From positions 1-64,000 of the forward strand of contig JAFQHO010000031.1 of NCBI GenBank assembly GCA_017397925.1: 64,000 nucleotides of DNA, written 5' to 3'. Made by a program: the position numbers and the translations under genes. The stretch comes from Ruminococcus sp. (GTDB lineage: Bacteria; Bacillota; Clostridia; Oscillospirales; Ruminococcaceae). The notes beneath the pieces were generated by a model, which had not been told where the DNA came from, searched no databases, and worked only from the letters and a program-made list of their open reading frames with translations. Positions within the stretch are counted from its first letter, which is position 1. Every line of letters starts with the position of its first letter. Positions 2,241-20,505 of this stretch are shown one piece after another.

Positions 2241-2246
2241 ATTGAA

Positions 2247-3199: not shown

Positions 3200-3228
3200 T
3201 TGACAAAACCCTCTTTTAGGTGTATAAT
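3200..3228 (+). promoter_or_regulatory. SigA promoter of the type VII-like operon
   Basis: TTGACA at 3200-3205 and TATAAT at 3223-3228, separated by exactly 17 bases: a full consensus promoter. It lies 69 bases before the TPR gene and marks the boundary between the toxin cassettes and the secretion operon. The remaining gap from 3080 shows nothing else recognisable. Confidence 0.85.
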
Positions 3229-3296
3229 TTAATGGGGTAAAATAACCAATAATCCCCGCTATTTAAACTGCAAGAATTCAAAAACGAGGTGAAACA

Positions 3297-4772
3297 ATGA
3301 TAAATACAGAACAACTTGCCGAGCTTATATCAAACTCGCAGACTGCTTTTTTAAACGGCAGAATGCAGGAGGCTTTCAGTCTGGCAAAAGAGGCTATATC
3401 TCTTGACCCTGACTGTGCCGACGCTTATCAGTGTGCTGCTAATGTATGTATGTCTCTCAGCCGATACGATGACGCTATTGAGTACTATCAGCAAGCGGTA
3501 AAATGTGAACCTGACAACGGAAATAGATATTTCAATCTCGGCTATGCTCAGGCATCCGTCAACAAAATTACCGAAACTATGCAAAGCTTTGCCAAAGCCG
3601 ATGAACTCGGCCTCAGTGAAGACGCCGCAGGTCAGATGTATCACATCCTCGGCATCGTCAATCAGCAGCTTGGCAGACTTGATGACGCTCTTATCAATCT
3701 AAAAAAATCAGAAATGCTTGTTCCGGGAGATATTGATATTCTCAAACGCAAAGCTGCTATATACGGCATACAGGATGACCTTCCTAACTGCCTTAGCGTT
3801 GCCAATCAGATGAAGCTTCTTGCACCGTCAGATTACTCGGGATATCAGGTAGCTTACATTATGTTAAAGCAGGCAAATCGCCTTGAGGACGCTTTCAAGG
3901 AGCTTGTTTACGCAAGAAAAAATCTTATGAATTTCCCATTCGCCCTTTGCAGTGATATGGTGAACTTTGAATTGACTGCATACGACAAGGATAATAATCC
4001 CGACCGTTTGCAGAGGGCTTTGACATATATCAAACATTATATGAAAAAAGAAAAGCCCTCAGTGGAGGAAGTAACAGAATGCTATCTCATTGCAGCTGAC
4101 CTGTATCTCCACACAGAAGAAGCAGAAAACGTTATTATGTGCCTTAAAGCGGCTGAAAAGCCTGCTTTCTCATACAATAACGGCGTATTCTTCTATGAAT
4201 ATGACCCTGTACAGGCTGATTCCATTGCTATTCTCAACGAAATGAACGCAAACCTCTACCGTTATGAACAGCTCAGCGTGGAACAGCTTGAAGAAATGAA
4301 AAACAGCGGTACATATCTCTCCCCTGCTAAAAACAACAGCGGAAACGATGAATACAAGCTTGATGAATCTGACGAATATACTATCTCTCCCGAAGATACA
4401 GACAGAATAAACCGTATGTACATCGGTGCATACACCCTTGCTGACGATTACAGAAAGGTTATGTACTACGCTCTTGAAATGCAGAAGAGCCAGCAGGAAT
4501 ACTTTGCACAGCTTGGTATGTATACCGAGGCGAATGCTATGAAATCCCTTAATCTCGACGGTTGGCGCGAGAAGTATGACGAGGTACAGAAGAAACTGCG
4601 TAATGCAGCCCTTAAAGACCCATCAAACTTCAATGCACTTATGCTCCGCGTAAAATGTCTTATTGATACGGAGCGATATGACGAGGCAGAGGAAAAATGC
4701 AGCTATCTCAGACAGGAACTGCAGGAGCCTCTCCTTGAAGAAATTAAAAAGGCGAAGAACGGAGGCGCTTGA
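3297..4772 (+). CDS. TPR-repeat protein, first gene of the type VII-like operon
   Basis: 491 residues, cytosolic, with a GAGGTG ribosome site. The first 200 residues contain degenerate tetratricopeptide repeats (for example AFSLAKEAISLDPDCADAY and DDAIEYYQQAVKCEPDNG), with more helical repeats near the C-terminus. TPR arrays are protein-binding scaffolds, so an adaptor or chaperone-like role for the small secreted helical proteins encoded next is plausible, but this is inference. A WXG100-like gene follows with its start 3 bases after this gene's stop, suggesting coupled expression. Confidence 0.8.
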   Translation: MINTEQLAELISNSQTAFLNGRMQEAFSLAKEAISLDPDCADAYQCAANVCMSLSRYDDAIEYYQQAVKCEPDNGNRYFNLGYAQASVNKITETMQSFAKADELGLSEDAAGQMYHILGIVNQQLGRLDDALINLKKSEMLVPGDIDILKRKAAIYGIQDDLPNCLSVANQMKLLAPSDYSGYQVAYIMLKQANRLEDAFKELVYARKNLMNFPFALCSDMVNFELTAYDKDNNPDRLQRALTYIKHYMKKEKPSVEEVTECYLIAADLYLHTEEAENVIMCLKAAEKPAFSYNNGVFFYEYDPVQADSIAILNEMNANLYRYEQLSVEQLEEMKNSGTYLSPAKNNSGNDEYKLDESDEYTISPEDTDRINRMYIGAYTLADDYRKVMYYALEMQKSQQEYFAQLGMYTEANAMKSLNLDGWREKYDEVQKKLRNAALKDPSNFNALMLRVKCLIDTERYDEAEEKCSYLRQELQEPLLEEIKKAKNGGA

Positions 4773-4774
4773 TT

Positions 4775-5083
4775 ATGGCAATTCTGTTTAACGATATAGT
4801 GCTTGACGATAACGCATTTACTACAGCTTCACAGGAAATGAATCAGCTGAAAACGGATGCGGAAACTCTGAAAGCCAAACTGGAAAAAATGTATGACGAC
4901 GTTTCAGGTGCTATGGATACAGCGGCAGGCGATGAAGTAAAAATCGCCGCAAGAGACGTACTGCTGCAGCCTGTAGAGGACCTGAGCGCTGTTATAAAGC
5001 ATATTTCCGAAACTCTGGATACCATTATAGGTACCGAATATTACAAGGATATATTCGTGAAGTATGAAGAACTGAACGGATAA
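4775..5083 (+). CDS. WXG100-like small helical protein A
   Basis: The ATG at 4775 is preferred over the TTG at 4769 because GGAGG at 4761-4765 is correctly spaced only for the ATG. The product has 102 residues and forms a predicted helix-turn-helix hairpin of the ESAT-6/WXG100 size. The turn region reads AAGDEVKIAARD, so the W-x-G motif is absent. No signal peptide or Cys. Location next to two more such genes and an EssC-type ATPase supports a role as substrate or partner in type VII-like secretion. Confidence 0.7.
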   Translation: MAILFNDIVLDDNAFTTASQEMNQLKTDAETLKAKLEKMYDDVSGAMDTAAGDEVKIAARDVLLQPVEDLSAVIKHISETLDTIIGTEYYKDIFVKYEELNG

Positions 5084-5105
5084 TAAAATTTAGGAGGAAT
5101 TAATT

Positions 5106-5432
5106 ATGGCAGGTATGGGACAAAACGGAACAATCAACATCACACCCGAAATGATGGACGAGGCAATCAAGGCTATTGCAACATATCGTACATCAGCTGA
5201 ATCACTTCATTCAAACATTCAGACAGAAGTAGAAACACTTACAGCAAGCGATTTCACAGGCTCCGCTTCCAACGGTTTCAAAAGCTTCTATGAAGAAAAA
5301 ATCCACCCCGTTACAGGCGAGGCTCTTAATCAGCTTCTTCAGGCACTTGAGGACATCTGCAAGAGCATAAAGGCTGCAATTCCCGATACAGAGGGCGTTG
5401 ACGAACAGCTTGGAACAGCAAACAATCAGTAA
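5106..5432 (+). CDS. WXG100-family protein B
   Basis: 108 residues with a strong AGGAGG site. Two predicted helices flank a turn SDFTGSASNGF, where F-T-G occupies the place of W-x-G, followed by a C-terminal helix (LNQLLQALEDICKSIKAAI) typical of WXG100 proteins. These are small dimeric substrates or substrate chaperones of type VII secretion. It lies between two paralogues and upstream of the ATPase genes. The aromatic replacement of Trp is unusual, though such variants occur in the family. Confidence 0.75.
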   Translation: MAGMGQNGTINITPEMMDEAIKAIATYRTSAESLHSNIQTEVETLTASDFTGSASNGFKSFYEEKIHPVTGEALNQLLQALEDICKSIKAAIPDTEGVDEQLGTANNQ

Positions 5433-5452
5433 TTTCAGGAGGTATAATAATT

Positions 5453-5755
5453 ATGGCAGGTTGTAGAATTGTAAAAGCTTCAATGGACAGCAGTGTTGCA
5501 AACCTTAAGGGCTATTCAGAGGAATTTAAAGAGGCAGGTTCAACTTTTGTAACTGCTTTCAATGCAGCTATCGAGGCTATGCAGGGCGACGCAAGAGACG
5601 CTCTTGTTGAGTTCTTTGAGACAAATATTGAGAAATTCGTTTCCACAGATATTCCTGAGGCTGTAAACGGACTTGCTTCACTTCTTGAAGCAAACGCTCA
5701 GAACTTCGACGATATTGACGCTCAGATTGCTGCAAGCATCAGAGGAGAAGGTTAA
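5453..5755 (+). CDS. WXG100-like protein C
   Basis: 100 residues with an AGGAGG site. The helical hairpin has MQGDARD at the turn, again lacking the Trp. The second helix begins LVEFFETNIEKF and the C-terminal part continues helical to the stop. It is the third consecutive small helical protein and may heterodimerise with protein A or B. Two GC-rich hairpins lie directly downstream. Secretion is inferred from context only. Confidence 0.65.
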   Translation: MAGCRIVKASMDSSVANLKGYSEEFKEAGSTFVTAFNAAIEAMQGDARDALVEFFETNIEKFVSTDIPEAVNGLASLLEANAQNFDDIDAQIAASIRGEG

Positions 5756-5767
5756 TAATATTCTTAT

Positions 5768-5829
5768 CAGTGCAGTTTGACGCGCACTGATGCAGCACCG
5801 CACAAAGCGCGCCTGGCGGCTTTGTGCGG
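5768..5829 (+). promoter_or_regulatory. Two tandem hairpins between WXG100-like gene C and the next gene
   Basis: Hairpin 1 pairs CAGTGC (5768-5773) with GCACTG (5784-5789). Hairpin 2 pairs CCGCACAAAGC (5798-5808) perfectly with GCTTTGTGCGG (5819-5829) around a 10-base loop. No T-run follows, so this is not a classical terminator. It could protect the 3' end of an mRNA for the abundant small proteins, or partly attenuate downstream genes. Confidence 0.75.
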
Positions 5830-5875
5830 TATTGCTTAAAAGATGGGTATAAAAACAAAGACAGGAGGTTCAGAA

Positions 5876-6913
5876 ATGGCTTTTAAAGAATTAACCGAAG
5901 AAATAATTTCTCTTATGACCGAGGAAGAAAAGCAGCGATATTACAAGCAATTGAATATTCATCGTCAGAGAGTAATGCTTGCTGAAAAGCTTGAACAGAT
6001 TGACAAGGCGGATTTCAAATATAAAAAGCCTGAATTCAGAAAAATCAAGCCTGTCCGTCGCGTGGATGACATACCGCAGTATAAGATGCCTGCAAAGGGT
6101 AATGCGGTTATTCCCGATAATATATTCAACGGCAGAAATATTGCTGCCGAAAATGAAAAACGCAGTTCAGTCAGCCAAACAATCACAAAAAGACTGAACA
6201 GAAAATATGGGATAAGCAATATTCCCGATTTAAAACATACCACGAAGCCCACAACGGTTTCTTTTAAAAATGCAGAAAAATACAAGGTAAGCGGACTGCC
6301 TGAAAATAAGGGTAAAATCGCTCAGCCGACATTGAAAATAAACTCAGACAGGCTGAATAAATGCGGCGGATATAAGATTAAGCCTGTAAGAGAAAATGCC
6401 GCAGATATAAAGATACCATTAACAAAGAAAATTACAGTACCCGATACTGTCAAGATAAATAACATTCCTGCTGTAACTGTCAAAAAGGCAGCTGTAAAGG
6501 AATTCATAAAACCCGAATTTGACACGCAGAAAATTTCAGATATAAAGAAGATATCTGCTGAAATTAAATCAGCACCTGCAAAGCCTGTATATAAAGCTCC
6601 CGAAAAGGCAGCGGTTTCCGTTCCCACGGTTGCTGTTAAAAAGGCTGAAGAGCTGAAAAAACGCATCTTCCCCGAGGTGAAAGTAAACGTTCCAAAGCTG
6701 AACAATATCACAGCGGCAGCGATAAACAAATATCAGCCTCCAAAAGCGGATATTTCCGTTAAATGCCCCATTGTACAGGATGCACCTGTAAGCAAGGCAA
6801 AGCCCATAGATATCCCCACTGTTAAAAAAACGGATATCCCTGAGGTAAATATCCCCCGCATCAATGAAAATGATTTTAAAAAAATCCTTGAAAGGGCAGT
6901 AAGGGGAATATAA
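5876..6913 (+). CDS. Disordered Lys/Pro/Ile-rich protein of the type VII-like operon
   Basis: The start at 5876 is chosen for its AGGAGG site seven bases upstream; an in-frame ATG at 5843 lacks one. The product has 345 residues. A short helical N-terminus (FKELTEEIISLMTEEEKQRYY) is followed by about 290 residues of low complexity dominated by Lys, Pro, Val and Ile, with recurring short units such as KIKPV, KISDIKK and IPTVKK. No signal peptide or membrane span. I recognise no family. Its place between the WXG100-like genes and the ATPase suggests a cytosolic, highly basic partner of the secretion machine. Confidence 0.6.
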   Translation: MAFKELTEEIISLMTEEEKQRYYKQLNIHRQRVMLAEKLEQIDKADFKYKKPEFRKIKPVRRVDDIPQYKMPAKGNAVIPDNIFNGRNIAAENEKRSSVSQTITKRLNRKYGISNIPDLKHTTKPTTVSFKNAEKYKVSGLPENKGKIAQPTLKINSDRLNKCGGYKIKPVRENAADIKIPLTKKITVPDTVKINNIPAVTVKKAAVKEFIKPEFDTQKISDIKKISAEIKSAPAKPVYKAPEKAAVSVPTVAVKKAEELKKRIFPEVKVNVPKLNNITAAAINKYQPPKADISVKCPIVQDAPVSKAKPIDIPTVKKTDIPEVNIPRINENDFKKILERAVRGI

Positions 6914-6925
6914 GGAGTACAACAT

Positions 6926-9900
6926 ATGAAGAATAACGAAATAATGATTTCGGTACAGTTTGATTTCCCCGTAAGCGATACATACGGTGATTTATCGGGA
7001 ACGGTTGACCGACTTGCTTTTCTCGTTAAAGATGATATTACATTGAAAGCGTTTCTGGAGGGACTATACTACGGACTACGCAACAACTTCCCAAACCACT
7101 TCCACCTCTACAGAAACTATATCAGACAGCGTAATCAGATAGCTGTAAATTATACCCGAAAGGGCAGATTTAAGGTTATCGACTGCGAAAAGGAGCTTGC
7201 AAAGCCCACTGTTACCCTTACAGAGCTTGGTTTTGTTACCTCAAGCGTGCTGATGATTACAATGAAAACAACTCTTACAGAAAAGATACTCTTTGAGGAA
7301 GTTCCTTCCAGTTATATTCTTAACTCTGAGGATAACTCCCTTGAATACAACATAAGCAGCCGTACTCTTGAAACTGTTGACGCTTCTGAATTTGAAATTC
7401 TCCCACCGGGAGATATGCCACAGAACGAGGAGCGTTCCCTTGCCGATATCCTTATTCCTACCGTTATTTCAACAGGCGGTATGATTGGTGTACGCGCCTT
7501 TATGTCAAGCTCCTCCTCGGGAGGTATGGGCGGTGCTATGTGGATGATGACCGCCGCTACAGGTGTTATGACACTTGTTACAACTACTTATAATTACTTC
7601 AAACAGGGAAAAACTAACCGCAAGAAGAAAAATGAGTGGAAAGACAACTACGAAAACTATATAAAGCGAGTTATTGGCAGAATCGGTGAATGGCAGCAGG
7701 CGGACGTTACATACCTTCAGCAGCTTTATCCCGATACAGCTGCACTTTTCAAGGACCTTGCAAGACTTGATTCCGCTATTTTTGCCCGTTCACAGAATGA
7801 CAATGATTTTATGCGTATAACTCTCGGTGTTTCGGAAAATGTCAAGCCTCTCTTTAATATAAAATACGAGAAAAAGGACGAAATATTCTCCGATATCTAT
7901 TACCGTATCTGCTACGAGAATTTCCAGAACGGCAAGGAAAAGCGTATATCAGGAATATACATAGATATCCCAAAGGATAAGCTTACCCGAAAGGAAAAGC
8001 TTGAAAAAGCGGAGCTTATAAAGAACGGCAGTCTTTCACAGGATAAATATCTCCTATCAGAGCTTTCTTACCGCTTTTCAACGGAATATTTCCGCTATCT
8101 TGACGGAAAAACCTGGGGAAGTGCCGATATTAAAGCCCCCTATATGCTCGATGTGAAGAATACAGGCGCTGTAGGTATAATTTCCGACCAGAATATGTAT
8201 GCCCACGATTTCATAAGACATACGGTGCTGGAGCTTACATACTACCACTCCCCTGAGGATATCCAGTTCGTATTCTTCTTTGAAAGCGGTCTGACCGCAG
8301 AGGAGCAGCAAGAAAAGATAAATTCATACAAATTCCTGCCCCATTGCAATGAGCTGCTGGAAAATACATCTCAGTTTGTTTTCAATCAGGAAAGTGCAGG
8401 CGAGGTTTACGGTCAGCTGCTGAATATAATGAATCAGCGCGAAAAGGATAATCACCCCGACGAGGAAAATGACGCTCCTCCTGAGAAGGTAACGCAGATT
8501 GTATGCGTTATATTTGACGATTATAATATAAAATCCACGGGATTTTCAAAATATCTCCCCGAAGCACCTAAGGAGGGCGAGGACTATCAGAACAGCCTCG
8601 GCCTTACGTTCCTGTTCTGCCGCGATAACAAGGATAAACTGCCCCGTTACTGCGGTGATGTGGTATATCTCCAGAACGGTACTAATAACGAGGGATACGG
8701 CTATGTTATTCCCCGTTACAGCGTAATGACCCGTGAAAATATCCTTGCAACTGTTACAGAACCGAAGAAATACCCAAATTTCGCCAATAATTTCATTTTC
8801 AACGGCAATATCTATAATGAACAGTATGAGCTTGCATATAAGCGTCTCAGCGCCATTTATTATACACGTATAGCTGAAAACGGTAAAGTTCCAAGTATGG
8901 TAACTCTCTTTGAGCTTTACAAAATTTCAAATGAAGATACCAAGCCCACTGTAAGTAATTCAAATAATCCGCTTGCTACAACAAATGCGGCAGCTAAAAT
9001 TCTCGGCAATTGGTCAAACTCCGATGAGGAATATGACGTTACGAGAAATCTCCGCGTGGATATAGGCGCAAACGAACACGGAAATATGCACCTTGACCTC
9101 TACGAAAAGGCAGACGGTCCTCATATGCTTGTTGCAGGTACAACAGGTTCAGGTAAATCGGAAACGATTATTACTTATCTTATCGGACTCTGTATGAAAT
9201 TCTCACCTATGGACCTCAATCTTATGCTTGTTGATATGAAGGGCGGAGGCTTCTCTGACCGTCTTGGCGACCTTCCTCACTGTGTAGGTGTTGTTACCGA
9301 TACCGCAGGCGAAAGCGAGGGCATTTCCTCGGCATATATGCTTAAACGCTTCCTTGAAACTCTCAATGCGGAAATCAAGAAAAGAAAACTTCTTCTGCAA
9401 AAATTGGGAGTTGATACAGCCGACGCATATATAAGAGCAAGAAGAACAATGACAGACCTTGACAGTCTTATGAAGTGTGAAAGCAATCTTACCATTTCAA
9501 AAGCAAGAGATATGCTCAAAGAGCTAAAGGTTCAGGAAAAATCTATAAAGGAATCAGGTTATTCCGACAGTGTAAAGAAAATACTTGAAAAAATCGGAAA
9601 GCTCAACGAAAAACAGCTGGAATATCTGGAGGAAAACGGCATAGAAAAAATAAAGTCTCTTTCCCACCTTGTTCTTGTAGTTGATGAATTTACCGAATTG
9701 AAGCGTTTTTCCAGCGAAAGCGATGATGTTGACTTCATTGCTGAAATTACTACAATCGCCCGTGTTGGACGTACTCTCGGATTTCATATCATACTCGTTT
9801 CACAAAACATAGAGGGCGCAATTACTGACGATATACGTGTTAACTCAAAGGCAAGAATATGCCTTAAAGTAGCCACAAAGCAGGCTTCAAAGGAAATGAT

Positions 9901-10270
9901 TGACAGCCCTGTTGCAGCTGCTCCCACAATGCCCTTAAACGGCAGAGCATATCTTCTTGTGGGTACGGGTTCAAGATTTGAATACTTCCAGTCGGCTTAT
10001 ACAGGTGCAAATCAGAATTTAAGCATTGAAAAACCTGTTGATATCACCTATGTACCCAACAGCGGACATTTCAACAGCAAATTCTATCGTTCACAAAAGG
10101 ATAACGAGATACAGATAAACAAGCAGAAAAACGTTGACCCCAACGCCACACAGCTTAAATTTGTAGTTGATACGATAATCGCTGTAAATAAGGACAGACC
10201 AATACCTGAAAAGATATTTATGCCGCCATTGAAAACAAATATTGAATACAAAATGGATTGGGTGAAGTAA
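6926..10270 (+). CDS. EssC-like FtsK/SpoIIIE ATPase, N-terminal half of a split motor
   Basis: 1114 residues. The first about 170 are cytosolic and of unclear fold. Two adjacent membrane segments lie at about 172-225 (LIPTVISTGGMIGVRAFM and the following MTAATGVMTLVTT). The FtsK/SpoIIIE domain has a Walker A motif GTTGSGKSE at 738-746, acidic residues in LMLVDMKGGG near 770, and VVDEF at 919-923. This is the layout of the EssC/EccC motor of type VII secretion up to its first ATPase domain. EssC normally carries further ATPase domains on the same chain; here these are on the next gene, one base downstream. A FHA pair, usual at the EssC N-terminus, is not evident. It is the best anchor for calling this operon type VII-like. 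Confidence 0.9.
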   Translation: MKNNEIMISVQFDFPVSDTYGDLSGTVDRLAFLVKDDITLKAFLEGLYYGLRNNFPNHFHLYRNYIRQRNQIAVNYTRKGRFKVIDCEKELAKPTVTLTELGFVTSSVLMITMKTTLTEKILFEEVPSSYILNSEDNSLEYNISSRTLETVDASEFEILPPGDMPQNEERSLADILIPTVISTGGMIGVRAFMSSSSSGGMGGAMWMMTAATGVMTLVTTTYNYFKQGKTNRKKKNEWKDNYENYIKRVIGRIGEWQQADVTYLQQLYPDTAALFKDLARLDSAIFARSQNDNDFMRITLGVSENVKPLFNIKYEKKDEIFSDIYYRICYENFQNGKEKRISGIYIDIPKDKLTRKEKLEKAELIKNGSLSQDKYLLSELSYRFSTEYFRYLDGKTWGSADIKAPYMLDVKNTGAVGIISDQNMYAHDFIRHTVLELTYYHSPEDIQFVFFFESGLTAEEQQEKINSYKFLPHCNELLENTSQFVFNQESAGEVYGQLLNIMNQREKDNHPDEENDAPPEKVTQIVCVIFDDYNIKSTGFSKYLPEAPKEGEDYQNSLGLTFLFCRDNKDKLPRYCGDVVYLQNGTNNEGYGYVIPRYSVMTRENILATVTEPKKYPNFANNFIFNGNIYNEQYELAYKRLSAIYYTRIAENGKVPSMVTLFELYKISNEDTKPTVSNSNNPLATTNAAAKILGNWSNSDEEYDVTRNLRVDIGANEHGNMHLDLYEKADGPHMLVAGTTGSGKSETIITYLIGLCMKFSPMDLNLMLVDMKGGGFSDRLGDLPHCVGVVTDTAGESEGISSAYMLKRFLETLNAEIKKRKLLLQKLGVDTADAYIRARRTMTDLDSLMKCESNLTISKARDMLKELKVQEKSIKESGYSDSVKKILEKIGKLNEKQLEYLEENGIEKIKSLSHLVLVVDEFTELKRFSSESDDVDFIAEITTIARVGRTLGFHIILVSQNIEGAITDDIRVNSKARICLKVATKQASKEMIDSPVAAAPTMPLNGRAYLLVGTGSRFEYFQSAYTGANQNLSIEKPVDITYVPNSGHFNSKFYRSQKDNEIQINKQKNVDPNATQLKFVVDTIIAVNKDRPIPEKIFMPPLKTNIEYKMDWVK

Positions 10271-10271
10271 T

Positions 10272-12107
10272 ATGGAAAAAACAAGAAAAATGATATGCAC
10301 TCCAGGACAGTATGACATTCCGATTGTACAGAAACAGCCCTTATTTATGGTTGACCTTCTTGACAAGAATATAGCCCTTTTTGGTGCTTCAATGAGCGGA
10401 AAAACAAACTTTCTCAAATTGATAATTCAGCTGCTCCATATGAAATACAACGAAGAAAACGAGCAGATTTTCATACTGGATTTCGGCGGAGCTATGGCTT
10501 CATATAAGGAATTTCCACTTGTTTCAGCCTATTTTGACAACTCCAACGAGGAATATGTTAAACGAGCTTTCAGAATTCTTGAAGATATTGTAAAGAAAAA
10601 CACCAAAGCTCTTAACGGTGATAATTTTTCTTCATATAATGGGGAAAAAAATATAATTCACACTACATTTATCATAGATAATCTCAACGCATTTCAGGAC
10701 GAGCCGCGATATGCAGCATATCAGGAAAAATTCGCCAAGATATGCCGCGATGGCTTATCAAAAGGTGTTACGGTGATATTTACCGCTTCCGATACAAAGG
10801 GACTTAACTCCTACCTCAGCAGTTTCGGACAGAAAATCGCCCTTGAAATGCCTGCTGACAAATATCTCGATATATTCAATTCAAAAGTAACTGAAATAGG
10901 CGCAATTCCCGGACGTGGATTTGCTAATGTTACCATAAAACCTGATGATATTGAGGGAACATTCAGAATGAATTATCCCTATGAATTACAGTGCTTTATT
11001 GCCGATTCCCTTAAAGATGAGGGAGAATATATGCACAATCTCAGGGATAAATTCGGCTATGACAGCGAAAAGGGAGTATACAGCCGCTGTGTGAAGAAAT
11101 ATCCCACGTTTTCGGGAGATCTTACAGTAAACGAATATAAGCGTCTGAAACGCACTCCCGAAGCAATTGAAAAGAAACGTGAGGGCATCCCCTGCCCTAT
11201 TTCCGTAGGACTTGATTATATTGACTTTTACCCTGTTGAGGTTGATTTTTCTGAATCGAGAGTCATCGGTATATACGGAAAAAAAGGCTATGGCAAGACA
11301 AACCTGCTCCGAGTTATACTTGATGAGCTGTTTGAGAAAAAATCAAATTCACGGTTTGTATTTTTCGATGACGGCAGAAAGCAGCTTAAAGAATTCTACG
11401 AAAAATGCGAAAAGCTCGGACTTGAATGCCATAAGTTTATCGAGACAAAAAAGAACTCTCCACTGCCGCCTCTGGAAGAAAAAAACACCGATACTTTTGA
11501 TATGTCAATGGGATTTCTTGACGTCATTGACAAACCGAAAACAGCCGCTGAGGGTTTCACAAAGACTTTATCCCCATATCAGCAGTTCTATCACTTCATC
11601 AACGACTACTATATGGACCTTACTTGGAACGGCTATTCAAACAGTCAGCTTCACTCCCCTGTTTCTACATATATCTACGGTGACGGAAAAGCTGACCTTA
11701 TGCCATCTTATAATGAAAATAAGAACCCTGTAAAACCTACTGTTTTTGTTCTGCAGAGCAAAATGCTGTATCTAAGTGCAAATGGTGAAAAACAGTTCAT
11801 AAACAACATTCTCCCGAAGCTGGCAGCTATTGCCGAAGATGAGGATCTGATATTCATATTTACCGATATTCAGAAAATCACCGACCAGGAAACAAACAAC
11901 TTCCTCAATAATACTATGAGTTCTGTTTTTCTCCTCGATAATATAGCTGAATTTGCAGCTGAAAGAGGACAGAAAACAGTATTCGGAAATATGGATGCCA
12001 AAGGGCTTAAAGAGGAATACGCCCGCTGTGAAACAGGCGATGGCTATTTCTACGACATAGAAGCTGACAGGCTTGTCAAGCTGAAATTCATCAAAAAAGA
12101 CGACTAA
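10272..12107 (+). CDS. Second EssC-like ATPase subunit (C-terminal half of the split motor)
   Basis: 611 residues and no membrane segment. There are two P-loop domains: GASMSGKTN with Lys at 44 and GKKGYGKTN with Lys at 342. The first has a plausible Walker B region (IFILDFGGAM). The architecture matches ATPase domains D2 and D3 of EssC, where the distal domains bind substrate signals. The gene starts immediately after the 1114-residue subunit, so the two chains presumably assemble. A split motor is known from mycobacterial EccCa/EccCb; the arrangement here is analogous. Start ATG at 10272. Confidence 0.85.
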   Translation: MEKTRKMICTPGQYDIPIVQKQPLFMVDLLDKNIALFGASMSGKTNFLKLIIQLLHMKYNEENEQIFILDFGGAMASYKEFPLVSAYFDNSNEEYVKRAFRILEDIVKKNTKALNGDNFSSYNGEKNIIHTTFIIDNLNAFQDEPRYAAYQEKFAKICRDGLSKGVTVIFTASDTKGLNSYLSSFGQKIALEMPADKYLDIFNSKVTEIGAIPGRGFANVTIKPDDIEGTFRMNYPYELQCFIADSLKDEGEYMHNLRDKFGYDSEKGVYSRCVKKYPTFSGDLTVNEYKRLKRTPEAIEKKREGIPCPISVGLDYIDFYPVEVDFSESRVIGIYGKKGYGKTNLLRVILDELFEKKSNSRFVFFDDGRKQLKEFYEKCEKLGLECHKFIETKKNSPLPPLEEKNTDTFDMSMGFLDVIDKPKTAAEGFTKTLSPYQQFYHFINDYYMDLTWNGYSNSQLHSPVSTYIYGDGKADLMPSYNENKNPVKPTVFVLQSKMLYLSANGEKQFINNILPKLAAIAEDEDLIFIFTDIQKITDQETNNFLNNTMSSVFLLDNIAEFAAERGQKTVFGNMDAKGLKEEYARCETGDGYFYDIEADRLVKLKFIKKDD

Positions 12108-12122
12108 TTGGAGGATAACACT

Positions 12123-12446
12123 ATGGCAAGTATCAGATGTGCCGATATTGAAAAGCTTGTACAGTTCGAAAAGGACAGTCAGGATGCAATTACGGAATTT
12201 GAGAGAATTAAAACCCAGTTCAAGACAATTAATGAAAATCTCCTTTCAAAATGGCAGGGGGCTGGTGCAAAGCAGTACAAAAAAGAGACAGACCATATTC
12301 TTGAAGAAATAACGAGTATTGCAGAAGTGCTTGACGCTATAAATAACGGCGTACTCAAGGATATCAAGAACGCATATATCCAGCTTGATGAAGAACTTAA
12401 AACATTCAACGAGAATCCCACTTCTGAGGAGGGTACAACCGCTTGA
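12123..12446 (+). CDS. WXG100-family protein D (canonical W-Q-G)
   Basis: The ATG at 12123 follows GGAGG with good spacing; the in-frame TTG at 12108 overlaps that site and is rejected. The product has 107 residues. Two helices are joined by LLSKWQGAGAKQYKKE, a textbook W-x-G turn followed by the helical C-terminus (DIKNAYIQLDEEL). It is the only one of the four small helical proteins with a true WXG motif, and so the most likely primary secreted dimer. The next small gene starts within its stop codon. Confidence 0.85.
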   Translation: MASIRCADIEKLVQFEKDSQDAITEFERIKTQFKTINENLLSKWQGAGAKQYKKETDHILEEITSIAEVLDAINNGVLKDIKNAYIQLDEELKTFNENPTSEEGTTA

Positions 12447-12613
12447 GCGATAAGAAAAAATCAATGAATCTTGCCGATATTGATATGGATGAAAAATCGG
12501 AAGAAAAAGAAAGCTGTATTAAACTTGATAAGCTTTCCGAGGGCAGCAAAAGTACTATATTCAGTATACTCCAGCTTCCCGAAACAGATGAAAAAGGAAA
12601 AAATAATAAATGA
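12443..12613 (+). CDS. Small acidic/basic protein coupled to the WXG100 and kinase genes
   Basis: A 56-residue gene easily missed because of its size and TTG start. TTG at 12443 overlaps the upstream TGA and is preceded by GGAGGG about 10 bases before. The stop TGA at 12611 overlaps the kinase ATG (ATGA). The product begins MSDKKKSMNLADID and has a charged middle and a short hydrophobic patch (STIFSILQL). No known family. The double overlap argues for real translational coupling. Confidence 0.65.
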   Translation: MSDKKKSMNLADIDMDEKSEEKESCIKLDKLSEGSKSTIFSILQLPETDEKGKNNK

Positions 12614-14538: not shown

Positions 14539-14549
14539 AGAGGTGGATT

Positions 14550-14921
14550 ATGGATATTATAAAAAGACTTAAATCGTATCTTGACAAACGATTTCAGAAA
14601 CACCCCATAGCAGGCTTTATTGTATACGGCATTCTTACAGGCTTTGCGGTATCTCTATGCCTTGTACTGCTTATACTTGCAGTACTCGCAATAACAGGTA
14701 TGTACGGCAGACTTGATATAGATTATCAGACCTGGAGAATATATATAATAATCGCGGCTATTGTGGCTGTTATTGTATTCGTTATCGGTGCTATGGCATT
14801 TTTTCCATACAAGAGAAAGGGCAACAGTCTTTTTAAACGGGAATATGTCAATGGTACATCATATAAAGCGCTGCACAATATTCTTGTAAATCAGCGTGAA
14901 AAGGAGGATGATAAACAATGA
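14550..14921 (+). CDS. Two-helix membrane protein of the type VII-like operon
   Basis: 123 residues with an AGAGGTGG site. A basic N-terminus (IIKRLKSYLDKRFQKH) precedes a long first membrane segment at about 26-52 and a second at about 66-90, followed by a basic tail. No family recognised. Its size and position suggest a small channel-associated subunit comparable in role to EssA or EsaA-type components, but there is no sequence support for either. Its TGA overlaps the start of the giant gene (ATGA). Confidence 0.65.
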   Translation: MDIIKRLKSYLDKRFQKHPIAGFIVYGILTGFAVSLCLVLLILAVLAITGMYGRLDIDYQTWRIYIIIAAIVAVIVFVIGAMAFFPYKRKGNSLFKREYVNGTSYKALHNILVNQREKEDDKQ

Positions 14922-17900
14922 TGGTTATAAAAAGGGCTTCCGCTGTTTTATCAGCATTGGCAGTTTTGCTCAGCTCAAATATAACTGGATTAACGGCAAT
15001 TGCAGAGGGAAACGACACCGTTACTGATATGGAAAATGAATTTCTTGAATCGGAATACAATTTTATTGATGTGAACGTTCCCGAAGATTGGACAAATACT
15101 ACAGATAACTGGGTTTCAGCTGAAAATGACGTAACCGTTTCTTATAAAATACTTGAAACAATCGATGATGAAGGACTTCTGAATGATTATTTCGGAGCTA
15201 CTGAATGGCACAACAGGGATATTCCCGAAGGCGAGGGATATATACAATTCTTTGCTGTCAAAGATGTCAACGGTAAGAAACTCTACAGTACAGAAGAACC
15301 CGTTCCATATAAATATGACAATACCGATCCCGAAAAGCCTGTTTTGAAAATAATCAAGGAAAACGGCAGACACTATATTCAAAACAAAGAGCCGATTGAT
15401 GACGGTCTTTCGGGAATAAAAGAAATAAAATGCGATGACGCTTGTGAAAGCATCGATTATGAAGAAACTGATACAGGTATATACTTTAAAATTCCCATAA
15501 CTGACGGAAAGGCAAATCAGAACATAAAAGTTGAAATTTATGATAATGCAGGAAACTATGCTGATCCATACATACATGTAAACAACTTTAAATGGAGCGA
15601 TATATCCGGATTTGAGGGGAATACCTGGGTTAACAATCTCAACAGCTGGAATGTACGATGCAACGATGATACTAATATTTATTATAAAACTTCTTCAGAT
15701 CAGAACATAGACTGGGGCAGCTATACAGATGAGGATGCACGTTTGTGGACAAATGTTGAGGATGCTAAAGATATAATCCCTCAGGGGGATATGTACATTC
15801 ATTTCTGGACTGTAAGCAAAGATGAAACAAGTCTTATTCACGCAGAAACCAAGAGTTATAAATATGATAATACCGCTCCGAATGAGTTTAAAGTAAAACT
15901 GGAGGAAAGGTATTACAGACCCTTTTACAAAGAACTTATTTACAGTTCAGAGGGTATTATTACCGATGATTTATCAGGTATCAGGAATATAAGAGTACAA
16001 ATTGGTGGGCAATCAAGCCATATCGGGCTTAATAATGAAAATAAATTCTCCTTCACAATCAACGCTCAAGAAGCTGAAGGAAAAAACGTTGAATTCTATG
16101 CAGTTGATAATGCCGGAAATGAAATAAAATCATCATCTGTTGTAGAGAATTTCTATGCTCCTGAAATTAACTATATGGATGTTTATTCAAAAGATTCTGA
16201 CGGAACATTTAAACAAATAGAAGCTCAGGAATACGGCAGCGAGAAAAACAACACCAATTCCAATCTTATTTATGCTAATTCCTCTGATTATCTGAAAGTT
16301 AATATGAAGGAAGCAAACGTAGACGCTTTTATCGTATCCGTCAATGACTCTGATAACTTTGAATACGAAATAACCAAAGAATTCATAGAAAATAATGTAT
16401 TTGAGAATATGTCTTATGCCACTGGCTCTGGAAATAAAGATGTTACTGACTGTGATTACTACATTCCGCTGAATGATCTCAATTTAACAAACAATAAAGC
16501 TAACACCATAACAATCCAGGCAAAAAGCGAACACGATAAGGTAAGTAATGCCATGGAAATTTCATTAGTATACGATGCTGATGAAAGCACTGTAACATAT
16601 GACTCCTCTTGCACTGATAGCGACGGAAATGATGTGGAAACACTGAATAACCTCAGATACTACGGACAAGCTATGACAGGCGAAATAACAGCTGATATCC
16701 AGGATAACACAGGTATAAAGAATTATCTTATCAATGTTATTGACAAGGATAACAAAATAATCAAAAAGCTTGAAGCAGATTTTTCCGCAGGTATCGAAAC
16801 AAAGGGAACATATACAAAGGTTGCAACAGTTACCGATGAAAACGGAGTTGTAACAGATGAAAATAAAAATACCGTTACAACTGTTGTTACAGATATTGTT
16901 ACATATAAAATGCCTAATAAAAACGCAACTGAAACTATACCTGTAATTGCAGATTCATTCCCTGCTGACGGCGAATACATTGTTCAGGCATTAGTTGAGG
17001 ATATAGCAGGCAACAAATATGATAAACCAAAGCAGTTCAGCTTTTTCATTGATAGAACTGCACCCACTATTGAGAATAACACTTATACAATTTCAGAAGA
17101 TGAGAATTCTCCAATTCTGAATTTCAAACCATTTGGCATATTCACAAATAAGGATTTCACAATTTCTTTCAAGGTTAAGGAGGAAATCAGCGGTATAACT
17201 GCGAATAATATTATCTTATATTTTAACGATGAAGATGAAACAGGATTTGCGGCTACGAAAAAAGGCAATGAATACACAATCACTGTCAAGGCTGATAAAA
17301 TAATTAACCGGAAGGGCATCCCCCGCATTGAACTGACTGACAAAATTGGAAATACTTCCGTTTATTATTTCACCACCGGAAAGGGAATTCTGACTACCGA
17401 TGAAAAGCTCAGCACAAGCCTTATGGTGGAAAGTATAAAGCCTACGGCATCTGTTGTGCTTCCCCCAGATTATATTGAATTAAACGGAGTTAAATGGTAC
17501 AGCGATGATATAAACTACACTGTATACGCTGCTGATGTTGACAGCGAGAAATGTCCCGATATGATTTCTGGTCTCAGCAACGCTACCATAACAGAAAATC
17601 ATCAGCCCACTCCAGATACACCGTATGTTACTACTGATATTTACAAGAGTATATCAGACAGCACACTCCCTGCTGAGCAGAAATATGTTGCTTCAACTAC
17701 ATATACACAGGCTATTACACAGGAGGGCAACTATACAATTGTTGCAGAAGCTGTTGATAATGCAGGTAATATACACATTTCTGAAACAGAAAATTTTTCT
17801 GTTGATAAAACCGATCCTGAAATATTAGGATTTCTGCTTCTAAGCGGTGATGAACGCGAAGATATTACGCCTATATCAATAAAGTCTGATATTTACGGCT

Positions 17901-20464
17901 ATTACTTCCAATCAGAAACAATTGTAAAAGTAAAAGTACGAGATATCGGCAATTCCTCAGGTTTGAATTATACAGCACTGATATGCGGAAAAGTATCAGC
18001 TGATAATCAGCGTGAATACTCACTTTTGAAAGCTACTTCATATGAAATAAACGAAAAAACAAAAGATGCATATGCAGTTTTCACCATTAAAGAAGCCTTC
18101 AAGGGCCATTTGTGGGCAATCACAACAGATAATGTTTCATTATGTGATATTGATAAAATAAATATAGAAGAAGTTCTTAAATTGGATATCGCTGAAAACA
18201 AAAACGCACTCATAAACTATTCTGCACAGTTCAAACATACATCAGGTTTTTCACATTTTGACGGTACAATACTTGAAACCCCCGAAATGCACGCTCAGCA
18301 TTCAGATATTGAAATAACCGTAAATACAGAAATTAACGGCAAGGATGCTGACGGCAATCCTCTCCACAATGACGATATTTCCCTTACTGTACACGTTAAG
18401 GACACTTTCTCGGGTATAGGAAAAATTCACTGCTCAATCGCAAATGATGAAGGAAAAGACGGGGAAATAATCATTAATAATGATAAAACAATCGTTAACA
18501 ACGGTGAACACTTCATTACAATTGATCCGAATTCAATAGTTACAGACAAAAACCTTATTACAGAACTCAGTTTTGATATTACTGTTTCAAGTAATACAAA
18601 TGCTAATAAAGTATCAATATTACTTGTTGACCGTGCAGAAAATTATAACACCAAGGAGAAAGTATACAGCATAGACAAGACTACTCCCACAATTACGGCT
18701 TCTATTGTGAATGATAAGCCGCAGAATTCTATATACTACAAGGATGACCAGACTGTTAAGGTATCAATTACAGAACGAAACTTTAACGGAGAGGATGTAG
18801 TATTTACCGTTAACGGCGAAAGTAAAAGTCTTGGCGGCTGGAAATCCGAAGGCGAGGGTGACAATACTGTTCATACAGCCGAATATACAATAACAGGAGA
18901 CGGCGATTACAGCTATACCGTAGCTTATACAGATATGGCAGGCAACAAAGGAGAGATCTTCTCACAGCCTATGTTTGTAATAGACAAAACTCCCCCTGTG
19001 CTGAAAACGAACTTCAGCACCTTCGGCAAGACAGATAAGGAGAATTTCTTCGGATGCAGCAGTATGGGAAAAACAGCTGAAATAACCATAACAGAACATA
19101 ACTTCTCGGCTGAGGCTGCAAATGTTACCCTTTATAAGAAATCTCCCGGAAGTGACCACAACACGAACGGTATGAGTAAAATACCTGCTTCTGACTGGAC
19201 TCACGAAGGCGATGTACATACACTGAAAATTCCATTTGAGGAAAATGATGACGGTGTATACTATATCAAGGTATCTCCACGTGATCTTGCTTCAAATCCT
19301 ACAGAATCACAGGAAACTGCTGTTTTCGAGATTGACTTCAAAAATCCCGTTATCACCTCACGTAATGGCAATAACGCAGAGAATAAGTATGAAAATCTTG
19401 AAATATACAGCGAAAAAACCGGCATAGAAGAAGGCTTTATTCCGTCTGTGGAATTTGATGATAAAAACTTCGACCACCTTGAATACGAGATTACCGTATA
19501 CACACCTGAATATACAAATGCAAGAGAATTAGGCGAAATCGTCCCTGATACTGACGAAGGAAAGACAGAGGAAAAAGTTTATTCTCTGCCTGAATTTACA
19601 AAGGACGGCGTATACTCCGCTGATGTTGTAGCTGTGGATAAGGCAGGAAATAAAAGCACTCTCTGCAGAAACACATCTGTTCTTATGATGAATACCGATG
19701 TTCTTGCATATATCTCCAACAGTAGCAAATCAGCACAAACAGGCTGGTATTCACTGCAAAAGGACGAGAATACACCTATAAGCAAACGTCCTGACTCTTT
19801 CAGCAACCTTGAAATTACTGTTTTTGCCCGTGAGGATTCTGATACGAGAATTATACTCAGAAATGCCAACGGTGAGTCAAAGGATACAGGCATTACTGCT
19901 GAAAATTCCGATGATATGTACGGAATGGCAGTTTATAACTATGTCCTGCCTAAGGAATACTTCGTTGATAATTATCCTGACGGCACAAATGAGGATATTT
20001 ACCTCTGGGCTGAAAATACAGCTGACGGTGAAACATCTCATACATCTCTCGGCTGGATAAGACTTGATTCTCTTGCACCAGACTGTGATGTTCCTGATAA
20101 TCTGAAAAGCTGGAAATCCTTTGCAGGCAGCACAAAGACCTTTACACTTTCCGGTATAAGTGAATCACTGGATAAATCCAAGTGTATGGTATACGACAAC
20201 GGCAATGCTGTTCCTGCTGAGAAAATTCAGTACTCTGATGAAAATCACAGCCTCTCCTACACCCTTGAAAAGGGCTGGCACGACCTAAGCTTCGTTCTCG
20301 TAGACGAAGCAGGCAACATCTTTACAGTTCAGGAGGTCTCCTCCGTACAGGTAGGCTTATTATACTGCCTGTGGTTCAGAATTCTCCTGGGAGTTATAGG
20401 TGCATCAGGAATTGCAGCACTTGTTATCTTCCTTGTAAAGAAAAAGTCAAAGAGATATTTATAA
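14918..20464 (+). CDS. Giant secreted, C-terminally anchored protein with Ig-like repeats
   Basis: 1848 residues. The N-terminal signal peptide covers about 1-30 (KRASAVLSALAVLLSS...). The ectodomain is a chain of bacterial Ig-like modules, recognisable from recurring linkers such as YDNTDPEKP, FIDRTAPTI, SVDKTDPEI, SIDKTTPTI and VIDKTPPVL, each preceded by DxAGN turns. A single C-terminal helix (LWFRILLGVIGASGIAALVIF) and a KKKSKRYL tail anchor it in the membrane rather than by sortase. The ATG overlaps the previous stop, so it is translated with the secretion genes; two adjacent ATG codons (14918, 14921) are possible starts. It may form an extracellular conduit, stalk or adhesin for the secretion system; that is inference. 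Confidence 0.85.
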   Translation: MMVIKRASAVLSALAVLLSSNITGLTAIAEGNDTVTDMENEFLESEYNFIDVNVPEDWTNTTDNWVSAENDVTVSYKILETIDDEGLLNDYFGATEWHNRDIPEGEGYIQFFAVKDVNGKKLYSTEEPVPYKYDNTDPEKPVLKIIKENGRHYIQNKEPIDDGLSGIKEIKCDDACESIDYEETDTGIYFKIPITDGKANQNIKVEIYDNAGNYADPYIHVNNFKWSDISGFEGNTWVNNLNSWNVRCNDDTNIYYKTSSDQNIDWGSYTDEDARLWTNVEDAKDIIPQGDMYIHFWTVSKDETSLIHAETKSYKYDNTAPNEFKVKLEERYYRPFYKELIYSSEGIITDDLSGIRNIRVQIGGQSSHIGLNNENKFSFTINAQEAEGKNVEFYAVDNAGNEIKSSSVVENFYAPEINYMDVYSKDSDGTFKQIEAQEYGSEKNNTNSNLIYANSSDYLKVNMKEANVDAFIVSVNDSDNFEYEITKEFIENNVFENMSYATGSGNKDVTDCDYYIPLNDLNLTNNKANTITIQAKSEHDKVSNAMEISLVYDADESTVTYDSSCTDSDGNDVETLNNLRYYGQAMTGEITADIQDNTGIKNYLINVIDKDNKIIKKLEADFSAGIETKGTYTKVATVTDENGVVTDENKNTVTTVVTDIVTYKMPNKNATETIPVIADSFPADGEYIVQALVEDIAGNKYDKPKQFSFFIDRTAPTIENNTYTISEDENSPILNFKPFGIFTNKDFTISFKVKEEISGITANNIILYFNDEDETGFAATKKGNEYTITVKADKIINRKGIPRIELTDKIGNTSVYYFTTGKGILTTDEKLSTSLMVESIKPTASVVLPPDYIELNGVKWYSDDINYTVYAADVDSEKCPDMISGLSNATITENHQPTPDTPYVTTDIYKSISDSTLPAEQKYVASTTYTQAITQEGNYTIVAEAVDNAGNIHISETENFSVDKTDPEILGFLLLSGDEREDITPISIKSDIYGYYFQSETIVKVKVRDIGNSSGLNYTALICGKVSADNQREYSLLKATSYEINEKTKDAYAVFTIKEAFKGHLWAITTDNVSLCDIDKINIEEVLKLDIAENKNALINYSAQFKHTSGFSHFDGTILETPEMHAQHSDIEITVNTEINGKDADGNPLHNDDISLTVHVKDTFSGIGKIHCSIANDEGKDGEIIINNDKTIVNNGEHFITIDPNSIVTDKNLITELSFDITVSSNTNANKVSILLVDRAENYNTKEKVYSIDKTTPTITASIVNDKPQNSIYYKDDQTVKVSITERNFNGEDVVFTVNGESKSLGGWKSEGEGDNTVHTAEYTITGDGDYSYTVAYTDMAGNKGEIFSQPMFVIDKTPPVLKTNFSTFGKTDKENFFGCSSMGKTAEITITEHNFSAEAANVTLYKKSPGSDHNTNGMSKIPASDWTHEGDVHTLKIPFEENDDGVYYIKVSPRDLASNPTESQETAVFEIDFKNPVITSRNGNNAENKYENLEIYSEKTGIEEGFIPSVEFDDKNFDHLEYEITVYTPEYTNARELGEIVPDTDEGKTEEKVYSLPEFTKDGVYSADVVAVDKAGNKSTLCRNTSVLMMNTDVLAYISNSSKSAQTGWYSLQKDENTPISKRPDSFSNLEITVFAREDSDTRIILRNANGESKDTGITAENSDDMYGMAVYNYVLPKEYFVDNYPDGTNEDIYLWAENTADGETSHTSLGWIRLDSLAPDCDVPDNLKSWKSFAGSTKTFTLSGISESLDKSKCMVYDNGNAVPAEKIQYSDENHSLSYTLEKGWHDLSFVLVDEAGNIFTVQEVSSVQVGLLYCLWFRILLGVIGASGIAALVIFLVKKKSKRYL

Positions 20465-20477
20465 TCACATAGTATCA

Positions 20478-20505
20478 ATCCCCTGAGCTATAAGTTCAGG
20501 GGATT
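20478..20505. terminator. Terminator between the type VII-like operon and the convergent membrane-protein gene
   Basis: AATCCCCTGA (20478-20487) pairs with TCAGGGGATT (20496-20505) over an 8-base loop. It sits between two convergent genes, so it may stop both transcripts, though the T-run on either side is short. Confidence 0.65.

What the first reader, a model, noticed from the sequence alone, without database searches (positions are those of the whole stretch)
3200..20505. Divergent type VII-like secretion operon with a split EssC and an active-looking kinase
One promoter drives TPR, four WXG100-like, disordered, two-part ATPase, kinase, two-helix and giant surface protein genes. Several standard components (EsaA, YukD/EsaB) are not recognisable. 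The set may define a distinct Clostridia type VII variant.
Basis: partly seen in the sequence, partly recalled or inferred. Interest (0 to 1): 0.85.

Follow-up and report, generated by a model that had tools for sequence, protein, structure and literature searches.

The report
Secretion machine with split motor
This gut/rumen bacterium carries what looks like a toxin-export machine of the type VII kind whose motor protein is cut in two and which has an active-looking kinase; related bacteria keep the same unusual gene set together, so it looks like a distinct branch of a known family.

Summary
The two ATPases together correspond to one EssC, cut between its first and second motor domains. In two trees (63 and 62 rows) the split ATPases form one clade (SH-aLRT 100) on a very long branch beside unsplit T7SSe-like ones; one relative has the halves fused. 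Gene order is conserved in Ruminococcus, other Clostridia and Coriobacteriia MAGs. The missing YukD is probably fused to the N-terminus of ATPase-1 (profile match, 0 of 300 shuffles as good; no match to the FHA region of other EssC). Catalytic motifs are intact in 15 of 17 kinases, window included. Cargo toxins share a new N-terminal domain, found in 11 of 11 genomes with the split motor and 0 of 6 without (10 of the 11 supplied the model). Kinase/two-TM/Ig resembles TsxD-H-I of T7SSd/e; a sister group has phosphatase, FHA, kinase and PASTA-pseudokinase genes there instead. Filed as a new variant of the type VII family, unlike the published T7SSa-j as far as I could read. Kinase mechanism is inferred; no structure model could be had.

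The parts
2..1291 (+). C-terminal part of a cargo toxin gene (glycine-rich stretch, PT-HINT, EndoU-like tip only at E 0.004); open at the left end because the contig begins there
   Evidence: the only cargo N-domain of this genome lies at the edge of contig C27; pieces not joined
1308..1694 (+). candidate immunity gene, 128 aa, no convincing family match
   Evidence: position only
1776..2240 (+). orphan toxin cassette: C-terminal part of PT-HINT plus a tip
   Evidence: PF07591 E 5.6e-11
2247..2543 (+). candidate immunity gene, 98 aa (Imm8 only at E 0.013)
2521..2796 (+). orphan PT-HINT fragment
   Evidence: PF07591 E 2.8e-18
3200..3228 (+). TTGACA-17-TATAAT, perfect sigma-70 consensus
3297..4772 (+). 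TPR protein, 491 aa
   Evidence: upstream of ATPase-1 with three WXG100-like genes in 19 of 21 testable loci, window included
4769..5083 (+). WXG1, 104 aa WXG100-like without WXG
5106..5432 (+). WXG2, 108 aa WXG100
   Evidence: PF06013 E 5.7e-10
5453..5755 (+). WXG3, 100 aa WXG100-like
   Evidence: E 6.7e-4
5876..6913 (+). DIS, 345 aa, Lys/Pro-rich, no convincing domain
   Evidence: before ATPase-1 in 20 of 21 testable loci, window included
6926..10270 (+). ATPase-1 (EssC first half): YukD-like domain about 1-112, two hydrophobic segments near 175 and 200, motor D1 with GTTGSGKS and LVLVVDEF
   Evidence: the window's hydrophobic segments are weak (best 1.53), those of 25 of the 35 proteins scanned exceed 1.6
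10272..12107 (+). ATPase-2 (EssC second half): motors D2 and D3, P-loops GASMSGKT and GKKGYGKT
   Evidence: fused to ATPase-1 in relative L010
12108..12446 (+). WXG4, 112 aa, the only one with a literal WXG (WQG)
12443..12613 (+). missed 12th gene, 56 aa, overlaps WXG4 stop and kinase start; motif T-I-[FY]-[DNSA]-[LIV]
   Evidence: in 14 of 20 loci scanned, window included; also L010
12610..14538 (+). kinase, 642 aa: kinase domain, one TM (421-439), C-terminal part presumably outside
14550..14921 (+). 123 aa protein with two TM helices (TsxH position)
   Evidence: downstream in 14 of 16 testable loci, window included
14918..20464 (+). 1848 aa protein, signal-peptide-like start, Ig-like (Big) domains, C-terminal TM (TsxI position)
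   Evidence: downstream in 13 of 16 testable loci, window included

Best explanation
A type VII (EssC/WXG100) secretion machine of a separate lineage that exports antibacterial polymorphic toxins. Shown by sequence: one EssC cut into a membrane half (ATPase-1: probable YukD-like domain, membrane segments, motor D1) and a second half (ATPase-2: motors D2-D3); WXG100-like hairpins; a TPR and a disordered protein encoded next to the motor; a membrane kinase with intact catalytic residues; a two-TM protein and a giant Ig-like envelope protein; a linked toxin family with its own N-terminal domain, a Lap-like partner gene and putative immunity genes. Inferred: toxin N-domain, Lap and a WXG100 hairpin form the export signal; the TPR protein brings it to the motor; ATPase-2 docks on ATPase-1 as EccCb does on EccCa in ESX-1 and feeds the substrate through D1; the Ig-like protein spans the wall as proposed for TsdI and EsaA; and the kinase, in the place and topology of the EssB pseudokinase, couples an outside signal to firing by phosphorylating a core component (the disordered protein or the 56-aa protein with its invariant Thr are my candidates). 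If ATPase-1 really has no FHA domain, the FHA-to-EssB contact of T7SSb cannot be how kinase and motor meet here.
For: EssC match across the two ORFs; best PDB relatives of the ATPase-1 profile are YukB, an FtsK/SpoIIIE protein and EccC5; split clade with support 100, branch 1.27 and 1.22, fused L010 nested inside; gene order; kinase orthologue in 16 of 18 genomes, 8 of 10 if genomes that supplied the kinase model are left out, also where it lies about 24 kb (G385) and 60 kb (G509) away with toxin genes between; cargo N-domain in 11 of 11 split genomes and 0 of 6 others, but 10 of the 11 supplied the model and only the window's genome is independent; toxin tips Cytotoxic (colicin-E3 type, behind PT-HINT, L036) and colicin-DNase/WHH (L089, no PT-HINT); YukD profile match and no match to the FHA region; 26 of 30 loci with EssC outside the split clade hold a free YukD-like ORF, 0 of the 3 split loci in the same run; 15 of 17 kinases intact.
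Against: No experiment, no structure model. The YukD match rests on sequence profiles: hhalign probability 12-44%, Pfam YukD does not hit, the PDB search with the domain finds nothing significant. No Pfam FHA hit on ATPase-1, but Pfam also finds none on the T7SSe-like ATPase L105. L038 lacks TPR, WXG1-3, DIS and WXG4 at the locus; L024 has a kinase without catalytic motifs and no two-TM or Ig gene; L018 has no TPR or WXG1-3 in its 4.2 kb upstream; kinase and Ig frames are broken in G385, kinase in L017. D2 and D3 show no Walker-B glutamate in the motifs my pattern picked. The kinase shows no sequence kinship with EssB beyond shuffles, tested with only three EssB.
Confidence: 0.75

Rival explanations
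1. It is an ordinary T7SSe or T7SSd member (kinase TsxD, TsxH, giant TsxI, EssC, WXG100) with trivial gene fission.
For: Gene order kinase - short membrane protein - giant Ig protein is the same as in the Coriobacteriia locus L179 (592, 159, 1651 aa); the nearest unsplit ATPases (L100-L106) lie in loci that between them hold PP2C, FHA, YukD, kinase and Ig-like genes.
Against: Split ATPase without an FHA match, no YukD, PPM or FHA gene in the operon, TPR and DIS added, a branch of 1.2-1.3 changes per column to the sister group; cargo domain not found in the three T7SSe-like genomes G344, G474, G545; kinase similar to T7SS kinases only in the kinase core.
Confidence: 0.12
2. Same machine, but the kinase is a structural stand-in for EssB and its activity is incidental; there is no phospho-switch.
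For: Same topology as EssB, which works as a pseudokinase (PMC11217815); L024 has lost the catalytic motifs; the operon has no phosphatase or FHA reader.
Against: Lys, HxDxKPxN, DFG and APE are invariant in 15 of 17 kinases; the sister group pairs the same core with PP2C, FHA, an active-looking kinase and a PASTA protein with a degenerate kinase domain.
Confidence: 0.3
3. A decayed or domesticated locus, or a DNA pump, not a working protein exporter.
For: Orphan HINT cassettes upstream and cargo cut at the contig edge; ATPases are FtsK-like; broken kinase frames in L017 and G385.
Against: Open frames and intact motifs in the window; WXG100 proteins; 16 matches of the cargo domain, two of them fragments, in one genome (G509). 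I noticed no relaxase next to the operon in the loci read, but did not search for one.
Confidence: 0.05

Closest known systems
T7SSe (Bacillota) and T7SSd (Actinomycetota), Garrett et al. 2024, PMC11217815
   Same: membrane kinase, short membrane protein, giant signal-peptide + Ig-like + TM protein; WXG100; EssC-type ATPase. The nearest unsplit ATPases in the trees are from T7SSe-like loci.
   Different: split ATPase without FHA match, YukD-like domain probably fused instead of free (T7SSe) or absent (T7SSd), TPR and disordered genes, two TMs in the H position, no F, J or K gene seen, own cargo domain.
T7SSb (EsxA-EsaA-EssA-EsaB-EssB-EssC)
   Same: EssC homology, WXG100, EssB-like kinase topology, Lap-like + toxin cargo.
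   Different: EsaA and EssB not found; EssC split; kinase looks active. EssA was not searched for.
ESX-1 of mycobacteria (EccCa1/EccCb1)
   Same: ATPase gene split in two; [quoted passage not shown] That the cut lies between D1 and D2-D3 there is recalled.
   Different: EccC rows are the outgroup of the trees; no EccB, D, E or MycP seen among the annotated genes (not searched by model); the ubiquitin-like domain is on EccD in T7SSa (PMC11217815), on the ATPase here.
Sister group of this study (mostly rumen Ruminococcus MAGs: L026-L031, L033, L039, L042, L043; and L035)
   Same: core TPR-WXG1-3-(Pro-rich ORF)-ATPase-1-ATPase-2-WXG4 where the locus is long enough, same cargo and Lap families.
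   Different: instead of kinase/two-TM/Ig: PP2C, FHA + zinc ribbon, active-looking kinase, PASTA protein with degenerate kinase; families checked in L033, others by size, order and kinase model. L035 differs again.

Membership tests
Type VII secretion superfamily (EssC/EccC + WXG100) | membrane FtsK/SpoIIIE ATPase of the EssC/EccC kind | tested here: met
   TIGR03928 over both ORFs, though 406.8 and 122.6 bits against a cut-off of 778.4; trees; membrane segments weak in the window, clear in many relatives
Type VII secretion superfamily (EssC/EccC + WXG100) | WXG100 protein encoded at the locus | tested here: met
   WXG2 over Pfam cut-off, WXG3/4 weaker
Type VII secretion superfamily (EssC/EccC + WXG100) | exports WXG100 proteins and substrates | not testable with these tools
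   needs a secretome
T7SSb | EsaA, EssB, free EsaB at the locus | tested here: not met
   EsaA 0 of 18, EssB 0 of 24 genomes over cut-off; YukD over cut-off in 4 of 19, not in the own genome
T7SSe | kinase, short TM protein, giant Ig protein (D, H, I) | tested here: inconclusive
   same kinds of protein in the same order, but kinase similarity is only that of the kinase core, Ig similarity may come from the repeats, and the H position has two TMs
T7SSe | single-chain ATPase, free TseB, PPM phosphatase TseF, FHA protein TseJ, TseK | tested here: not met
   split ATPase; no YukD in the genome; no PPM or FHA match among the operon's proteins
T7SSe | N-terminal FHA domains on the ATPase | tested here: inconclusive
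   no FHA hit on ATPase-1 and no match of its N-terminus to that region of other EssC; but Pfam misses FHA on L105 too
T7SSd | five components A, C, D, H, I with a single-chain C and no ubiquitin-like protein | tested here: not met
   split C, probable YukD-like domain, extra TPR/DIS
YukD/EsaB family (N-terminus of ATPase-1) | sequence profile match over the domain | tested here: met
   hhalign up to 81 columns, E down to 2.3e-4, 0 of 300 shuffles as good, nine other 120-residue windows of ATPase-1 weaker; FHA-region profile scores like shuffles; Pfam itself does not hit
YukD/EsaB family (N-terminus of ATPase-1) | beta-grasp fold | not tested
   structure prediction failed and was switched off
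EssB/YukC | homologous pseudokinase | tested here: not met
   profile score 24.35 against 25.07 for the best of 60 shuffles, three EssB only; no family hit over cut-off; catalytic motifs present

The most novel reading that the evidence does not exclude
A further T7SS subtype, with a core (TPR, three WXG100-like, disordered linker, YukD-ATPase D1, separate D2-D3 ATPase, fourth WXG100, in one branch a 56-aa peptide) that is kept while a whole phospho-signalling and envelope module is swapped: kinase + two-TM + Ig tower in one branch, PP2C + FHA + kinase + PASTA pseudokinase in the other. The motor would be gated by a transmembrane kinase without FHA domains, and its own cargo domain would mark a private toxin repertoire.
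Probability: 0.7. Interest if true: 0.75.

Novelty: new variant of a known kind. Interest (0 to 1): 0.62.

Why it matters
It gives gut and rumen Ruminococcus and relatives a toxin exporter that I found described nowhere in the papers reached, with toxin genes that can be found by one N-terminal domain. It puts the ubiquitin-like subunit, whose role in T7SS is unclear, on the motor itself, which makes its site of action testable. And the natural swap of kinase modules on one core offers a way to ask how kinases and pseudokinases gate these machines.

Tried and rejected
Standard components by family search: EssB, EsaA, free YukD in carriers' genomes. EssB gave only sub-threshold hits (6 of 24 genomes at E 0.006-0.12); the one EsaA-model hit (G455, E 1.2e-21, below cut-off) looks YhgE/Pip-like to me (name recalled). 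Kinase as an EssB homologue: no signal above shuffles. PDB search with the ATPase-1 N-domain: only E 0.26-0.59, among them the ubiquitin-like end of NEDD8 E1, not counted. YukD model against single ATPase-1 N-termini: L032 (16.6 bits) exceeds the best of 3500 shuffled decoys (11.7), the other 34 do not. N-domain as a relic of FHA: score like shuffles. Conserved promoter: not supported. A WXG100 hit elsewhere in the own genome (C69) is an ABC-transporter-like permease. PADLOC hits (mad6, mad8 etc.) look like generic kinase and FtsK/HerA similarity. What remains is that the D1 P-loop lies at 738, as far in as in long EssC (699 in L101, 670 in Listeria) and farther than in L094 (473).

Counts and dropped rows. 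One search gave 38 loci; L040 and L041 are unsplit, L045 an FtsK-like hit. Of the other 35, L019 (looks like the contig of L004) was not analysed, L025 has broken frames and ends before ATPase-2, L010 is fused, 32 have a separate ATPase-2. Tree 1: 63 rows, without L004, L007, L009, L012, L019, L021, L025, L031, L037, L045, L091, L098, L107, L109. Tree 2: 62 rows, also without L023, L027, L028, L029, L033, L034, L042, L116, L119, with seven unsplit and one split Coriobacteriia rows added. Both are quick searches with SH-aLRT only, with warnings of long branches. Of 391 genomes of the class 38 match the EssC model at 1e-40; by my reading of the table 29 unsplit, 4 split (G509 has both), 6 short FtsK-like matches only. 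In the window's family 3 of 148 genomes have ATPase-1 at 1e-30. Of 120 genomes of a Coriobacteriia order 13 match, 3 of them split by my reading.
Full report
1. What is there. The window is G000 contig C19, bases 1-64000. On the + strand 3297-20464 holds TPR, WXG1, WXG2, WXG3, DIS (345 aa from 5876), ATPase-1, ATPase-2, WXG4, kinase, two-TM protein and giant Ig-like protein. The longest gap, 163 nt between WXG4 and kinase, holds a coupled 56-aa ORF at 12443-12613 whose relatives share T-I-[FY] (14 of 20 loci scanned, window included). In L036 that small gene follows WXG4 directly although cargo genes stand before the kinase, so it goes with the core. A perfect promoter consensus lies 68 nt before the TPR gene; of 26 relatives' TPR starts only L020's has one.

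2. The motor. ATPase-1 aligns with the EssC model at positions 200-568 (best stretch), ATPase-2 at 783-1144. D1 has GTTGSGKS or, in L035, GTTGSGKT and a hydrophobic-VDEF motif in every split-clade ATPase-1 listed; D2 has a P-loop in every ATPase-2 listed, D3 in all but L024 and L032. Two hydrophobic segments lie near residues 175 and 200; the better one exceeds 1.6 (Kyte-Doolittle, 19 residues) in 25 of 35 ATPase-1 proteins and is 1.53 in the window. In L010 the two halves are one 1728-aa frame, with the rest of the operon in place; L010 is nested in the split clade, so this looks like a later fusion, and it supports one functional unit. Split eccC genes are known from ESX-1 (PMC2763215, passages).

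3. YukD. 26 of 30 loci with EssC outside the split clade hold a YukD-like ORF; the three split loci L087-L089 scanned in the same run hold none. The own genome has no PF08817 hit; 4 of 19 carrier genomes have one over the cut-off. Profile comparison of 34 ATPase-1 N-termini with 27 YukD gives E 1.1e-3 over 41 columns; with seven T7SSe-type YukD it runs over 80-81 columns (E 2.5e-3 and, with another alignment, 2.3e-4); 0 of 300 column-shuffled profiles reach the score for either set, and nine other 120-residue windows of ATPase-1 score lower (best 17.1 against 27.8) with at most 20 columns. The same N-termini against the N-terminal 230 residues of 22 long EssC (the FHA region), or of L100-L106 alone, score like shuffles (25 and 35 of 60 as good). 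hhalign's own probabilities stay low (12-44%), and among single sequences L032 alone beats decoys. I rate the fusion at about 0.8. Structure prediction could not be had.

4. Conservation. A scan of one genome for each of 84,980 species gave 38 loci. In the window-like group, of 21 loci (window included) with at least 3.4 kb before ATPase-1, TPR and three WXG100-like genes are present in 19, DIS in 20 (L016's DIS); of 16 with at least 7 kb behind it, kinase follows in 15, two-TM in 14, Ig protein in 13. Exceptions: L038 (kinase and two-TM before ATPase-1; TPR, WXG1-3, DIS, WXG4 not at the locus), L018, L024 (degenerate kinase, no two-TM or Ig), L017 (cargo inserted, locus ends). Whole genomes: kinase orthologue in 16 of 18 (missed: G554, G556); eight of the 18 supplied the model, of the other ten 8 have it. 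In G509 and G385 kinase, two-TM and Ig genes lie about 60 and 24 kb upstream of the core with cargo genes between; in G385 the kinase and Ig frames are broken.

5. Tree. Split ATPases (31 of 63 rows; 25 of 62) are one clade with support 100 and the longest inner branch seen (1.27, 1.22). Their nearest unsplit rows are L100-L106 (joint branch 100 in both trees), from loci that between them hold kinase, PP2C, FHA/DUF6382, YukD and Ig-like genes, i.e. T7SSe-like by the description of PMC11217815. Unsplit Coriobacteriia rows, among them the T7SSd-like L179, lie elsewhere. Split Coriobacteriia rows nest inside the Clostridia ones, which suggests transfer or misbinned contigs.

6. Kinase and envelope part. 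Lys, HxDxKPxN, DFG and APE are intact in 15 of 17 window-like kinases; L024 has neither HRD nor DFG motif and L017's is in two frames. Topology is that of EssB, but no sequence kinship is detectable with three EssB. The order kinase, short membrane protein, giant Ig protein is that of L179 (592, 159, 1651 aa), whose parts fit the description of T7SSd (O. uli TsdI 1654 aa; Sec signal, C-terminal TM, Ig-like domains).

7. The sister group. L026-L031, L033, L035, L039, L042, L043 have ATPase-1, ATPase-2 and WXG4, and TPR and three WXG100-like genes in the nine with enough sequence upstream. In L033 WXG4 is followed by a PP2C gene, a stretch where my gene picker chose a minus-strand ORF over the second gene that other loci show, an FHA + zinc ribbon protein, a kinase with HRDISPDN and DFG and a PASTA protein whose kinase domain has neither; L007/L043, L026, L029, L030 and L042 show ORFs of like size and order, with two of about 240 aa after WXG4, and the kinase motifs agree. 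L035 differs: a 498-aa gene (PP2C-like to my eye, not confirmed) and five cargo genes. The ORF before ATPase-1 there is also rich in Pro, Ala, Glu (268-374 aa) but the DIS model does not hit it.

8. Cargo. Upstream of the core, and between WXG4 and kinase in L017 and L036, lie genes with a conserved ~150-aa N-terminal domain, a hydrophobic stretch, often PT-HINT, and variable tips. Pfam names tips in two of the toxins scanned: Cytotoxic (L036, behind PT-HINT) and colicin-DNase/WHH (L089, without PT-HINT); it names neither the N-domain nor a LXG domain, nor does NCBIfam. The N-domain model hits 52 ORFs in the loci scanned, sister group included, some loci overlapping; a ~187-aa gene, Lap-like by position and coiled-coil look, 20. 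In genomes the N-domain is in 11 of 11 with the split motor and 0 of 6 without (G019, G135, G112, G344, G474, G545); since 10 of the 11 supplied rows to the model, only G000 is an independent find. In G000 the single N-domain lies at the edge of contig C27 with a Lap-like gene, and a toxin's C-terminal part at the edge of C19; whether they are one gene is not decided here.

9. Mechanism and verdict. The parts list supports a type VII exporter of antibacterial toxins; loading, docking and kinase gating are inferred. It fails defining features of T7SSb, d and e that I could test and so is filed as a new variant within the superfamily. Literature: full-text searches were seen as listings only, except PMC11217815 (sections named above) and PMC2763215 (passages); no listing seen names a split-motor T7SS in Clostridia, but listings were capped, most subscription papers are not held, and the supplement of PMC11217815 was out of reach.

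Noticed in passing
   Followed up: partly
window 2-2796: Run of PT-HINT remnants and small ORFs: a store of orphan toxin tips and possible immunity genes before the operon.
   Followed up: partly
L010 10001-15187: Both ATPase halves fused into one 1728-aa frame in a close relative.
   Followed up: yes
L024 5619-7547: Kinase homologue without catalytic motifs and with a longer C-terminal part: a natural pseudokinase in the same clade.
   Followed up: no
L017 20646-22528; G385 C1 958283-960144: Kinase in two frames in two genomes, cut near the catalytic loop: sequencing error, decay or real fission is undecided.
   Followed up: no
G509 C1: One genome on a single contig with both an unsplit T7SS ATPase and the split one, and 16 matches of the cargo domain (two fragments) in several places.
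   Followed up: partly
L100 8521-10477: An unsplit locus with a TPR protein next to WXG100-like genes; its TPR matches Pfam EccA1 N-terminal domain (E 2.8e-8), a possible hint to the origin of the TPR component.
   Followed up: no
window 6926-10270, residues about 845-910: Charged insert between Walker A and B of D1, longer in the window and L004 than in L005 (alignment).
   Followed up: no
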